Shown here piece by piece: positions 3,629 through 6,429 of a stretch of 16,886 bases of DNA. This stretch comes from an uncultured Alphaproteobacteria bacterium (lineage in GTDB: Bacteria; Pseudomonadota; Alphaproteobacteria; Caulobacterales; Hyphomonadaceae): assembly GCA_903831485.1 (NCBI GenBank), contig CAIKXW010000049.1, positions 1 to 16,886 on the forward strand. The letters are read 5' to 3'. Each line of letters starts with the position of its first letter. Within the stretch, counting starts at the first letter, position 1. The notes below the pieces were generated by a model, which did no database searches, was not told the DNA's origin, and saw only the letters and a program-made list of their open reading frames with translations. Position numbers and translations under genes: made by a program.

Positions 3629-3711
3629 CCGCGATCCTTGGCCGAAGCCCAACCAGGGCGCAGACTGCCGCGGACATTCCTCGCAATTCGTCAACGCGGG
3701 CGGAGCACTTG

Positions 3712-3725
3712 ATTGCAAATGCAAC
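3712..3725. promoter_or_regulatory. Candidate operator palindrome upstream of the dioxygenase gene
   Basis: ATTGCAAATGCAAC is a near-palindrome (TTGCA...TGCAA) that matches 12 of 14 bases of the perfect palindrome before the pirin gene at 5679-5692. The bases after it are also alike (aatgtcc here, tacatgtcc there). It lies in the 116-base gap between the divergent lipoprotein and dioxygenase genes. Its position argues against a dioxygenase start at ATG 3727, one base beyond it. The binding protein is unknown. Confidence 0.55.
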
Positions 3726-3744
3726 AATGTCCATGTTGAGGAGC

Positions 3745-4524
3745 ATGTTGCCAGCGATCTTCGTTTCCCACGGCTCCCCCATGCTCGCGATCGAGCCCGC
3801 AGAGGCGCGCGACTTTCTCGCGGATCTTCCGCGGCTCCTTCCCGAGCGTCCGAGGGCAATCCTCGTTATCTCGGCCCATTGGGAGCGCCTGCGCCCCGCC
3901 GTGAATGCGCCCGCGCATAACGAGACCATCCACGATTTCGGCGATTTTCCGCAGGCCCTGTTCGACCTGCAATACCCCGCCCCTCCCGCGGCCGACCTCG
4001 CGCATCGTGTCGCCGAACTCCTGACGGCCGGCGGCATGCCGACGGATATCGACACGCGCCGCGGTCTCGACCATGGCGCATGGGCGCCACTGATCGTGGC
4101 CTGGCCCGACGCGAACGTGCCCGTGCTGCAGCTGTCGGTGCAGACGCGCCTCGGTCCGGAACATCATTTCCGCCTCGGGCAGCTGCTTGCGCTGCTGCGC
4201 GAGGAAGGCGTGCTGATCCTCGGCTCCGGCAGCTTCACGCACGACCTGTCGAGCTTCCGCATCTCGGGCGGCCGTATCGATGCGCCGGAACAGGACTGGG
4301 TCCGCAGCTTCGCTGACTGGATGGTGTCGGCCCTGCGGGAGGGCCGCATCGACGACCTCTTGAACTACCGCACGCGCGCACCGGAAGCGGTTCACAACCA
4401 TCCGACCGAAGAACACCTGCTACCGCTTTACGTAGCGCTCGGCGCAGGCGCCGACCGCACTTCGCACCTGCACCAGAGCACCACTTACGGCATCCTGCGG
4501 ATGGACGCGTTCGCGTTCGGTTGA
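3745..4524 (+). CDS. DODA/YgiD-type class III extradiol dioxygenase
   Basis: A 259-residue cytosolic protein of the LigB-like family that includes 4,5-DOPA dioxygenase YgiD of E. coli. These enzymes use a metal bound by histidines to cleave a catechol ring next to its hydroxyls. Expected residues are present: FVSHGSPM (His9), VISAHWE (His45), LDHGAWAPL (His110, the region of the conserved catalytic histidine), SGSFTHDLSSF (His166) and NHPTEEHLLPL (His219/His224). Length fits the family (about 260-270). The start is uncertain: GAGGAG at 3738-3743 is close to ATG 3745 and TTG 3748, and the fold begins at once (PAIFVSHGSP). ATG 3727 and 3733 are also in frame but lie on or against the palindrome and lack a ribosome site. 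The shared upstream palindrome links it to the pirin gene 1.2 kb downstream. The true substrate is unknown. Confidence 0.9.
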   Translation: MLPAIFVSHGSPMLAIEPAEARDFLADLPRLLPERPRAILVISAHWERLRPAVNAPAHNETIHDFGDFPQALFDLQYPAPPAADLAHRVAELLTAGGMPTDIDTRRGLDHGAWAPLIVAWPDANVPVLQLSVQTRLGPEHHFRLGQLLALLREEGVLILGSGSFTHDLSSFRISGGRIDAPEQDWVRSFADWMVSALREGRIDDLLNYRTRAPEAVHNHPTEEHLLPLYVALGAGADRTSHLHQSTTYGILRMDAFAFG

Positions 4525-4628
4525 ACTCGCCCACTGACGAGTGCGTGCACACTCTGTTGCTTGGACCAATCCTGCGCTAATTCAGGGTCAAAGCCGGAGA
4601 AACCGGTTGAAACTGTCAGGCAGGAAAC

Positions 4629-5474
4629 ATGACCACGATCGCTGCACCACGCCCTCGCTCAAGCCTCTTCCGCCGCGCCGCTTTCGCGCTTGCCGCTGCA
4701 TCGGCGCTTTTCGCGTCCGCCTGTGCAAGCATGGGCAACATGATGAGCGAGCCGCAGCAACCCGCCATCGGTCTCTATGAGATGCGGATCTACACGCCCG
4801 CGCCGGGCAAGAAAGCCGCCCTCGATGCGCGCTTCCGCGACCATACGGTCGGCCTGTTCCAGAAGCACGGCATGACGCCTATCGGCTTCTTCCACGTCTA
4901 CACCCCGCCGGGCGCGCCGGCTGACGACCGCCTGTTCTACGTGATGGGCTACAAGGACCGCGCCGCACGCGATGAGTCTTGGCGTGCGTTCGCACAGGAT
5001 CCGGAGTGGCAGAAGGTCTATGCCGACAGCCAGAAGGACGGCTCGCTTACCACGCAGGGCGGCATCGAGAATGTCTTCTTCAGCCCGGCGGAGTATTCGC
5101 CGAAGCTCAACCTCACGCCGTCAGCCACGCCGCGCCACTTCGAGTATCGCGTCTACACGGGAAACCCGGGCAAGCTGGAAAACATCCACGCCCGCTTCCG
5201 GGACCACACCATGCGCATCTTCGCGCGCCTCGGCATGGCCAACTATCTTTACTGGCGCCCCGTCGCCGACCAGCCGGCGCAAACCGACAAGATGGCCTAC
5301 ATGCTTGCCTTCCCCACCGCGGCAGCCCGCACGACCATGTGGCAAGCCTTCGGCGCCGACGAAGAATGGAAGAAGGTCTCAGCCGAAAGCCAGGTCGGCG
5401 GCCAGCTGCTCAAGACCCCGGGCGGCGTCGTCTCGGTCCAGCTGACGCCGACGGACTACTCGCCGCTGCGCTAG
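4629..5474 (+). CDS. Exported tandem NIPSNAP-family protein, probable lipoprotein
   Basis: A 281-residue protein with two NIPSNAP (dimeric alpha/beta-barrel-like) domains. The first covers about residues 48-155 (LYEMRIYTPAPGKK, then ARFRDHTVGLFQKHGM) and the second about 170-280 (FEYRVYTGNPGKLENIHARF, then RDHTMRIFARLGM). Both repeats carry ARFRDHT and a late W-x-AF-x(5)-W motif (WRAFAQDPEW, WQAFGADEEW), so the duplication is internal and old. The N-terminus has RR at 15-16, a hydrophobic run and ASAC, making Cys32 a plausible lipidation site; the lipobox is weaker than usual. Most bacterial NIPSNAP proteins are single-domain and cytosolic with no settled activity. CAGGAAAC precedes the ATG. 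It ends with its own strong terminator and sits between the dioxygenase and the pirin. Confidence 0.85.
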   Translation: MTTIAAPRPRSSLFRRAAFALAAASALFASACASMGNMMSEPQQPAIGLYEMRIYTPAPGKKAALDARFRDHTVGLFQKHGMTPIGFFHVYTPPGAPADDRLFYVMGYKDRAARDESWRAFAQDPEWQKVYADSQKDGSLTTQGGIENVFFSPAEYSPKLNLTPSATPRHFEYRVYTGNPGKLENIHARFRDHTMRIFARLGMANYLYWRPVADQPAQTDKMAYMLAFPTAAARTTMWQAFGADEEWKKVSAESQVGGQLLKTPGGVVSVQLTPTDYSPLR

Positions 5475-5492
5475 TCAAACTGCAAACGATCG

Positions 5493-5524
5493 AGCCCCCG
5501 GCCCACAAAGCCGGGGGCTTTTTT
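5493..5524 (+). terminator. Rho-independent terminator after the NIPSNAP gene
   Basis: A perfect 10-bp GC-rich stem (agcccccggc 5493-5502, gccgggggct 5510-5519) with a seven-base loop runs straight into six T's (5519-5524). This is a textbook intrinsic terminator 18 bases after the NIPSNAP stop codon, so the pirin gene needs its own promoter. Confidence 0.95.
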
Positions 5525-5544
5525 GCGGCCATGATTAAGCGCCG

Positions 5545-5623
5545 TTAGGACTACCCCAATTCCTTACGCATCTTAGGAATAGCCCCATTCCTGCGATCGT
5601 TAGGAATTGCCCAATTCCTGACG
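5545..5623. repeat. Three tandem copies of a ~24-bp inverted-repeat unit
   Basis: Copies begin at 5545, 5573 and 5600 (spacing 28 and 27 bases). The third contains the perfect inverted repeat AGGAATTG-cc-CAATTCCT (5602-5619). The second has AGGAAT...ATTCCT. The first is more diverged on its left arm (AGGACT...AATTCCT). All start TTAGGA, keep a C-rich centre and end in CG. They lie between the NIPSNAP terminator and the pirin promoter, which suggests a cluster of operators for one DNA-binding protein. No family assignment is possible from the sequence. Confidence 0.7.
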
Positions 5624-5669
5624 GCCGTTGACCATTGGCCCGGCTCAGGGTGGGCTCCGGCGCGACCAC

Positions 5670-5698
5670 TTGAATCTTGTTGCATATGCAACTACATG
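5670..5698 (+). promoter_or_regulatory. Candidate pirin promoter with embedded 14-bp palindrome
   Basis: TTGAAT (5670-5675) and TACATG (5693-5698) are separated by 17 bases and resemble weak -35 and -10 elements. The spacer holds the perfect palindrome GTTGCATATGCAAC (5679-5692). A protein bound there would block RNA polymerase, so a repressor that responds to a small molecule fits best. The palindrome is clear; the promoter elements are only moderate matches. Confidence 0.5.
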
Positions 5699-5730: not shown

Positions 5731-6429
5731 ATGATCGAAGTCCGTCCTTTTGACACCCTTGGCGGCGCCAACCATGGCTGGCTTGACGCCCACCACCACT
5801 TTTCGTTCGCGGAATACTATGACCCCAACCGCATGAACTGGGGCAGGCTCCGCGTCTGGAATGACGATATGATCGCGCCGAAGTCCGGCTTCCCGCCGCA
5901 CCCGCACAGCGACATGGAGATCATCACCTACGTCCGCACCGGCGCCATCACCCACCAGGACTCGATCGGGAACAAGGGCCGCACCGCTGCAGGAGACGTG
6001 CAGGTCATGTCCGCTGGCACGGGCGTGCGACATGCCGAGTACAATCTCGAGGACGAGACCACGACCATCTTCCAGATCTGGATCGAGCCGGACCGTCACG
6101 GCCAGAAACCCAGCTGGGGGGCGCGGCAGTTTCCGAAGTCGGACCGGACCGGCGCCTGGTCCATCCTGGCGTCTGGCAAGGGCGATGAAGGCGCGCTCGG
6201 CATCCAGGCCGACGCACGTGTCGCCGGCGTTACATTGGAAGCCGGACAAGAAATCGTCTGGGAAACAACGGCCGAGCGGCATGTCTACGCCGTCGCCGCA
6301 ACCGGCGCGATCGAAGTGGAGGGCAAGCACGCAAAGGCGCGGGATGGCGTCGCCATCACCGGGTCGAACCGTATCGTCTTCCGTGCGGTCGAAGGCCCTG
6401 CCGAGATCGTGCTCACCGACACGGTTTGA
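5731..6429 (+). CDS. Pirin family protein (YhhW-like)
   Basis: A 232-residue bicupin protein. Bacterial pirins such as E. coli YhhW bind a metal and can oxidise flavonoids like quercetin; others act in redox or quinone metabolism. The metal ligands fall at the family positions: His57 and His59 (PPHPHSDMEI), His101 and Glu103 (GVRHAEYN). The MSAGTGVRHAEYN and FQIWIEPD motifs are typical. Length equals that of YhhW. The start at ATG 5731 follows GAGGAG (5718-5723) with a seven-base spacer; in-frame ATGs upstream at 5677 and 5686 lie on the palindrome. It is monocistronic by appearance. It shares its candidate operator with the dioxygenase upstream, a pairing that makes sense because pirin and YgiD-like genes are often found together in proteobacteria. 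Confidence 0.93.
   Translation: MIEVRPFDTLGGANHGWLDAHHHFSFAEYYDPNRMNWGRLRVWNDDMIAPKSGFPPHPHSDMEIITYVRTGAITHQDSIGNKGRTAAGDVQVMSAGTGVRHAEYNLEDETTTIFQIWIEPDRHGQKPSWGARQFPKSDRTGAWSILASGKGDEGALGIQADARVAGVTLEAGQEIVWETTAERHVYAVAATGAIEVEGKHAKARDGVAITGSNRIVFRAVEGPAEIVLTDTV

What the first reader, a model, noticed from the sequence alone, without database searches (positions are those of the whole stretch)
3712..5692. Same palindromic operator before the extradiol dioxygenase and the pirin
ATTGCAAATGCAAC (3712-3725) and GTTGCATATGCAAC (5679-5692) match at 12 of 14 bases, and both are followed by closely related flanks ending in atgtcc. The second lies between candidate -35 and -10 elements, as a repressor site would. 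Pirin and YgiD-type dioxygenases are known to act on aromatic or flavonoid/quinone compounds. The shared site suggests one regulon for an aromatic or quinone signal, with the NIPSNAP lipoprotein between them as a possible member. The regulator is not encoded in the window.
Basis: partly seen in the sequence, partly recalled or inferred. Interest (0 to 1): 0.7.

Follow-up and report, generated by a model that had tools for sequence, protein, structure and literature searches.

The report
MarR operator shared by quinone-detoxifying enzymes
A short mirror-image DNA site sits in front of two ring-attacking enzyme genes, and in related bacteria the same site also lies at a repressor gene paired with a predicted quinone reductase, which points to a small detoxification regulon that E. 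coli appears to have wired independently with a different regulator.

Summary
The two sites are real, and no shuffle of the window reproduces exact matches. The pirin site is kept in the 9 closest loci and in 0 of 71 more distant pirin loci. It fills the 17-bp spacer between conserved -35 and -10 elements. The missing regulator was found in relatives: a MarR-family gene, divergent from an NADPH-FMN (ChrR/YieF-type) reductase, with the palindrome at the pair in 17 of 17 genomes holding close orthologues. Of 22 strict TTGCAWWTGCAA sites in nine relatives, 18 lie at pirin, DODA or marR; with TTGCG forms, 26 of 49. DODA is a variable member (intact in the window and 4 of 10 readable relatives). 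NIPSNAP has no site of its own. E. coli's unrelated LysR regulator YhaJ controls the same enzyme types in response to hydroquinone (PMC5031710 passages), so a quinol/quinone signal is plausible but untested. The palindrome is not exclusive: 23 other family genomes carry it before other genes. The window's own genome is not held, so its marR is inferred. Verdict: a real, new predicted MarR regulon of a known kind.

The parts
3709..3714 (+). -35-like TTGATT of the DODA promoter, overlapping the operator
   Evidence: CTTG kept in 9 of 9 aligned DODA promoters, the window's included; inference from consensus
3712..3725 (+). operator ATTGCAAATGCAAC before the DODA
   Evidence: ATTGC-N4-GCAAC also in G003, G004, G005, G007
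3732..3737 (+). weak -10-like CATGTT; implied start of transcription at about the DODA ATG (leaderless)
   Evidence: 17-bp spacing read; position aligned; inference, not listed by the scan
3745..4524 (+). LigB-type extradiol dioxygenase, YgiD/DODA-like (start taken at MLPAIFVSHGSP)
   Evidence: PF02900 E 1.1e-37 (query from 3730); PRK10628 4,5-DOPA-extradiol-dioxygenase 191.8 bits, below its cut-off 233; PDB 8in2, YgiD 2pw6
4629..5474 (+). NIPSNAP-domain lipoprotein; no operator of its own
5492..5524 (+). strong intrinsic-terminator-like hairpin after NIPSNAP, separating it from the pirin unit
   Evidence: -30.2 kcal/mol for 5475-5530, z -5.2; not among the 4 terminator-like sites of the simple scan
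5670..5675 (+). -35 element TTGAAT of the pirin promoter
   Evidence: TTG at fixed distance from the operator in 12 of 13 promoters
5679..5692 (+). operator GTTGCATATGCAAC filling the pirin promoter spacer
5693..5698 (+). -10 element TACATG of the pirin promoter
   Evidence: TA at offsets 14-15 and T at 18 in 13 of 13 promoters
5731..6429 (+). pirin, YhhW/quercetinase-like
   Evidence: PF02678, PF17954; PDB 6uts quercetin 2,3-dioxygenase and 1tq5 YhhW, E about 1e-51

Best explanation
The palindrome is the operator of an autoregulated MarR-family repressor. In relatives the repressor gene is divergent from an NADPH-dependent FMN reductase of the ChrR/YieF type, with one or two copies of the site at their shared promoter region. 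A dimer bound to GTTGC-N4-GCAAC occupies the spacer of the pirin promoter and the -35 region of the DODA promoter and blocks RNA polymerase. A quinol, catechol or quinone releases it, directly in the usual MarR pocket or through the invariant wing cysteine, so that the reductase, the pirin and in some species the DODA are made together to reduce and cleave the compound. Shown by sequence: sites, promoter geometry, conservation, the marR/reductase pair and their co-distribution. Inferred: binding by this MarR, repression, the ligand, the role of the cysteine, and that the window's own genome carries the marR gene.
For: Pirin site in 9 of 9 loci L001-L009 and 0 of 71 others, later also in G102, G105, G087. 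11 of 14 operator columns invariant in 13 promoters against 0 of 52 flank columns. In nine relatives 18 of 22 strict TTGCAWWTGCAA sites lie at pirin (7), DODA (3) or marR (8); 1.8 (base composition) or 6.2 (first-order model) sites would be expected in 36.5 Mb. marR and FMN reductase are divergent with the palindrome at the pair in 17 of 17 genomes with E below 1e-40. G087, whose 3.4 Mb lie essentially in one contig, holds exactly two GTTGCAWWTGCAAC sites, one at marR and one at pirin. MarR domain and MarR fold. Of 50 tested genomes with distant, site-less pirins, 48 have no match to this MarR at E 1e-20. E. coli YhaJ controls yhhW, yhaK and ygiD on hydroquinone (PMC5031710 passages); Gram-positive MhqR controls reductases and ring-cleavage dioxygenases on quinones (PMC6798810 passages).
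Against: No binding, expression or ligand data. The window's own genome is not held, so its marR is inferred from relatives. The same palindrome occurs in 23 of 105 family genomes without a close marR orthologue, in 9 of them beside a 4-hydroxyphenylpyruvate dioxygenase-like ORF, in others near pfaD- or argD-like genes, so the motif alone does not name this regulator. With the looser TTGCRWWTGCAA only 26 of 49 positions are at the regulon; G087 has four further TTGCG-type sites whose neighbours I did not look at. Five of 7 more distant marR genomes have no pirin site (one of them, G158, a 2-mismatch sequence). The DODA site is lost in G008, G009, G102, G105. G426 has a MarR match at E 1e-44 with no such site. 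4 of the 22 strict sites are elsewhere.
Confidence: 0.75

Rival explanations
1. The sites are bound by another MarR-type regulator with the same recognition sequence, such as the one beside 4-hydroxyphenylpyruvate dioxygenase in other genomes of the family, so pirin and DODA belong to an aromatic amino acid (tyrosine/homogentisate) circuit.
For: GTTGCAWWTGCAAC lies beside a HPPD-like ORF in 9 of 23 family genomes lacking a close orthologue of this marR, and in G016 between HPPD (4HPPD above cut-off) and a divergent MarR-type gene.
Against: Among the ORFs printed beside the sites of G001-G009 I recognised no HPPD, and the only regulator gene recognised beside the strict sites was the marR paired with the reductase. 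HPPD genes themselves were not searched for in those genomes.
Confidence: 0.1
2. Correct MarR regulon, but the signal is not a quinone: for example a flavonoid, salicylate-like acid, sulfane sulfur or general thiol stress sensed by the wing cysteine.
For: The listed nearest structures include a MarR protein with salicylate, benzoate and catechol; the wing Cys99 is invariant in 17 of 17; MarR proteins sensing sulfane sulfur are in print (PMC11211675, start of abstract in the listing).
Against: The enzyme set (FMN reductase, YhhW-type pirin, YgiD-type DODA) overlaps the hydroquinone-induced YhaJ set of E. coli.
Confidence: 0.3
3. Chance palindromes in promoter gaps with no shared regulator.
For: With mismatches allowed the window alone is not striking.
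Against: Conservation and genome-wide placement.
Confidence: 0.02

Closest known systems
E. coli YhaJ regulon (LysR family; yhaK, yhhW, ygiD, yqjF, ybiJ, yceP; hydroquinone/DNT-inducible)
   Same: Same enzyme classes under one regulator: YhhW is among the closest solved structures to the window's pirin; YgiD is a relative of the DODA. Inducer reported as hydroquinone-like (PMC5031710 passages).
   Different: LysR-type regulator with a TCA-N7-TGA box; here a MarR gene, a different palindrome and repressor-like placement. No FMN reductase was named in the passages seen.
MhqR of B. subtilis / S. aureus (MarR quinone repressor)
   Same: MarR repressor with quinone/azo reductases and ring-cleavage dioxygenases in the B. 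subtilis regulon (PMC6798810 passages).
   Different: 9-9 bp operator TATCTCGAA-aTCGAaATA; no pirin named in the passages seen; sensing reported not thiol-based, whereas this MarR has an invariant wing Cys.
Campylobacter RrpA/RrpB with MdaB/NfrA
   Same: MarR-family proteins linked to a flavin-dependent quinone reductase (PMC8765430, start of abstract in the listing; not read).
   Different: RrpA is described there as a positive regulator; no pirin or DODA mentioned in what I saw.
HpaR / SlyA-type MarR regulators
   Same: Best, sub-threshold NCBIfam matches (HpaR 38.3 bits against cut-off 121.2; SlyA 34.8 against 120); 12-bp palindromic sites are typical (recalled).
   Different: Far below the curated cut-offs; no homoprotocatechuate operon was recognised at the loci.
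ChrR/YieF flavin reductases
   Same: The divergent gene matches PDB 3u7r (E 3.4e-42), 1rtt, chromate reductases 3s2y/4hs4/4h6p and E. coli YieF 3svl.
   Different: Family similarity only; substrate not tested.

Membership tests
MarR-family autoregulated repressor system | winged-helix MarR domain | tested here: met
   PF12802 E 2.3e-10 and PF01047 E 4e-08, both above cut-off; AlphaFold model (mean pLDDT 83.4) matches MarR structures
MarR-family autoregulated repressor system | palindromic operator in its own, usually divergent, promoter | tested here: met
   17 of 17 genomes; in G009 the copy strictly between the genes is one letter off and the exact copy overlaps the marR start
MarR-family autoregulated repressor system | DNA binding relieved by a ligand or oxidation | not testable with these tools
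   needs EMSA
MhqR (quinone-sensing MarR) | MhqR 9-9 bp operator | tested here: not met
   operator here is GTTGC-N4-GCAAC, MhqR's is TATCTCGAA-aTCGAaATA
MhqR (quinone-sensing MarR) | regulon of reductase plus ring-cleavage dioxygenase | tested here: met
   by shared sites only: FMN reductase, DODA (variable), pirin
YhaJ regulon | LysR-type regulator | tested here: not met
   the regulator gene beside the sites is MarR
YhaJ regulon | co-regulated YhhW-type pirin and YgiD-type DODA | tested here: inconclusive
   enzyme types match and both carry the site in the window, G003, G004, G005, G007, but co-regulation itself was not measured and the DODA site is lost in 4 of 10 readable relatives
HpaR equivalog | score above NCBIfam cut-off 121.2 | tested here: not met
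   38.3 bits

The most novel reading that the evidence does not exclude
A quinol-detoxification regulon in which a thiol-sensing MarR (invariant wing Cys99) controls a ChrR/YieF-type reductase, a YhhW-type pirin and a YgiD-type dioxygenase, convergent with the LysR-controlled set of E. coli. The second operator lies over the marR start codon, so operator DNA also dictates the protein's first residues and one site could gate both transcription and translation of marR-mtaB-ftsY.
Probability: 0.25. Interest if true: 0.65.

Novelty: new member of a known kind. Interest (0 to 1): 0.5.

Why it matters
Bacterial pirins and YgiD-type dioxygenases are widespread and poorly understood (recalled). Finding the same enzyme pair wired to a common signal by two unrelated regulators (LysR in E. 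coli, apparently MarR here) argues that they act as a unit on quinol-like compounds. It gives a precise operator, a candidate regulator and a relative with only two strict 14-bp sites in its genome in which to test the idea.

Tried and rejected
Own-genome scan: not possible, no genome is held; replaced by genomes of relatives. Chance: rejected on conservation and placement. Shared 'atgtcc' flank: rejected, not conserved. NIPSNAP as direct target: rejected. TTGCG-type sites: the scan gave 71 rows, that is 49 positions, 22 strict and 27 of the TTGCG form; 8 of those 27 are at pirin or marR. Several of the others (TTGCGATTGCAA) lie beside a YceI-like gene (L104, L108, L114, L120; only L114 confirmed as YceI) and look like a different motif. 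The strict form was chosen for the headline count after seeing this. Motif as exclusive to this regulator: rejected. Weaker MarR matches: the 10 order-level hits at E 4e-36 to 1e-28 have no TTGC-N4-GCAA site in their loci (0 of 10) and were dropped as orthologues; the E below 1e-40 line was drawn after seeing the results.

Literature: no paper linking a MarR, a pirin and this palindrome appeared among the papers listed. Several of these lists were capped (20 of 106, 15 of 844, 12 of 287, 8 of 15), and most papers of subscription journals are not in the library. Four spellings of the palindrome gave 9 papers, none on this subject by title. PMC10376123 (Acinetobacter, yhaK pirin) was seen in listings only.

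Full report
What was checked. One search shows ATTGCAAATGCAAC at 3712-3725 and GTTGCATATGCAAC at 5679-5692. Exact TTGCAWATGCAA is found only there in the window, and in none of 200 shuffles. With mismatches allowed the window alone would not be convincing, so the case was tested in relatives. No whole genome is held for the window itself.

Conservation at the pirin. The pirin query gave 364 relatives, of which the best 80 were kept as loci; the nearest are records named Hyphomonadaceae or Alphaproteobacteria. A site of the form GTTGC[AG]WWTGCAAC lies 50-53 bp before the pirin start in 9 of 9 loci L001-L009 (79-94% identical pirins): exact TTGCAnnTGCAA in 7 and the TTGCG form in 2. It is absent in 71 of 71 others, whose best match to GTTGCATATGCAAC within 250 bp upstream has at least 4 mismatches. 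The site was also found before the pirin in G102, G105 and G087, and with one mismatch in G174, but not in G258, G131, G226 or G206, and only as a 2-mismatch sequence in G158. In 13 promoters including the window's, 11 of 14 operator columns are invariant and mean identity is 95%; the 52 flank columns outside the -35/-10 average 51% and none is invariant. TTG stands at a fixed distance before the operator in 12 of 13 (not in G087), and TA follows it at once in 13 of 13: the operator fills the 17-bp spacer. These sequences are related by descent and are not independent trials.

The DODA. Its site overlaps the -35-like element, and the weak -10-like element ends a few bases before the ATG, which suggests a leaderless message (inference). 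ATTGC-N4-GCAAC is intact in the window, G003, G004, G005 and G007; degenerate in G001 and G002; lost in G008, G009, G102 and G105; the G006 gene is only partly detected and its promoter was not read. In G087 no DODA was found at E 1e-20. So the DODA is a variable member.

NIPSNAP. It sits between DODA and pirin in 9 of 9 loci L001-L009 but has no site in 8 of 8 loci checked, and a strong terminator-like hairpin follows it in the window (the simple scan did not list it). It can only be a member by read-through from the DODA promoter.

The regulator. A scan of G001-G009 with TTGCRWWTGCAA found sites in 9 of 9 genomes; the reversed-pattern control hit 1 of 9. Counted by position the strict form TTGCAWWTGCAA gives 22 sites, 18 of them at pirin (7), DODA (3) or a divergent gene pair (8). 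With the TTGCG forms the count is 26 of 49. The expectation for the strict form over 36.5 Mb is 1.8 by base composition or 6.2 by a first-order model (composition from the fetched loci, not the whole genomes). The pair is a MarR protein of about 163 aa and an NADPH-dependent FMN reductase (PF03358 E 8.7e-41), closest among solved structures to 3u7r, 1rtt, chromate reductases and E. coli YieF. It is present in 9 of 9 genomes (loci L103, L107, L112, L116, L117, L121, L123, L126, L128). In 8 of the 9 two sites lie 26-28 bp apart (in G009 one of them is a letter off; in G007 the second is degenerate). The second covers the first codons of marR, so that the operator letters encode the protein's first residues, mostly (M/L)-R-(M/L)-Q-Q.

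How far it extends. With the nine-protein alignment A1, 13 of 105 family genomes match at E 1e-15: ten at E below 1e-90, G087 at 7e-46, and G072 and G056 at about 4.5e-32. 27 of 398 order genomes match at E 1e-25. Seventeen genomes have E below 1e-40. In 17 of 17 the reductase is divergent from marR and the palindrome is at the pair. In the 10 weaker matches no such site was seen. G087, listed at 3.4 Mb with both genes on one contig of 3,398,407 bases, has exactly two GTTGCAWWTGCAAC sites, one at marR and one at pirin; with TTGCG forms allowed it has four more, not examined. Of 50 (from 71) genomes with distant, site-less pirins, 48 have no match to the 17-protein alignment at E 1e-20; the two that do (G426, E 1e-44; G442, E 2e-35) have no site in their loci. 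mtaB and ftsY follow marR in 9 of 17; in 2 the contig ends there, and in 6 neither was found by tblastn at E 1e-10.

Limits of the motif. GTTGCAWWTGCAAC occurs in 35 of 105 family genomes against 1 of 105 for the reversed control. Twelve are the genomes of this system (G105's contig ends before marR, so its marR was not seen). I looked at all sites of the 23 others, one of which, G072, has a weaker MarR match. In 9 the neighbour is a HPPD-like ORF, judged by its N-terminus, one confirmed as 4HPPD with a divergent MarR-type gene; in others it is near pfaD-like or argD-like genes (one of each confirmed). Other regulators of the same broad family probably read the same palindrome there (inference).

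Mechanism. The placement is that of a repressor site. The MarR model has the usual wing, with strands 94-98 and 106-110 and Cys99 at the wing, invariant in 17 of 17 orthologues; the listed nearest folds include MarR, HpaR and a MarR protein bound to catechol. The enzymes fit a common substrate class: a YhhW/quercetinase-type pirin and a YgiD/DODA-type dioxygenase. In E. coli the LysR protein YhaJ controls yhhW, yhaK and ygiD in response to hydroquinone, and the authors propose a role in quinol degradation (PMC5031710, passages). MhqR shows a MarR protein doing a similar job in Gram-positives (PMC6798810, passages). Binding, repression and ligand are inferred, not shown.

Verdict.

Noticed in passing
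L159, L166, L167, L169, L170, L172, L174, L183, L190 (family genomes without a close orthologue of this marR): The same palindrome lies beside a 4-hydroxyphenylpyruvate dioxygenase-like gene, in G016 (L159) between it and a divergent MarR-type gene; a second regulon with the same operator letters.
   Followed up: partly
L107, L112, L117, L121, L123, L126, L128, L182, L193: marR is followed by mtaB and ftsY, so an SRP receptor gene may sit in the same autoregulated operon.
   Followed up: partly
L103, L112, L116 and other marR loci; distant forms L207, L212: The second operator overlaps the marR start codon, so the first residues of the protein are operator sequence.
   Followed up: partly
L104, L108, L114, L120: A related but different site, TTGCGATTGCAA (paired with TTGCAATCGCAA 21 bp away in L104 and L114), lies before a YceI-like gene (confirmed by profile in L114 only).
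   Followed up: no
L115:4997 and L122:4983: A perfect palindrome lies between thyA and a small lipoprotein-like ORF in two closely related genomes.
   Followed up: no
L105:4824: TTTGCATTTGCAAA lies just upstream of a glyoxalase/extradiol-dioxygenase-fold (VOC) gene in G003, a possible extra target.
   Followed up: no
L160, L165, L171, L175: The palindrome recurs beside a PfaD-like gene in four family genomes (confirmed by profile in L171 only).
   Followed up: no
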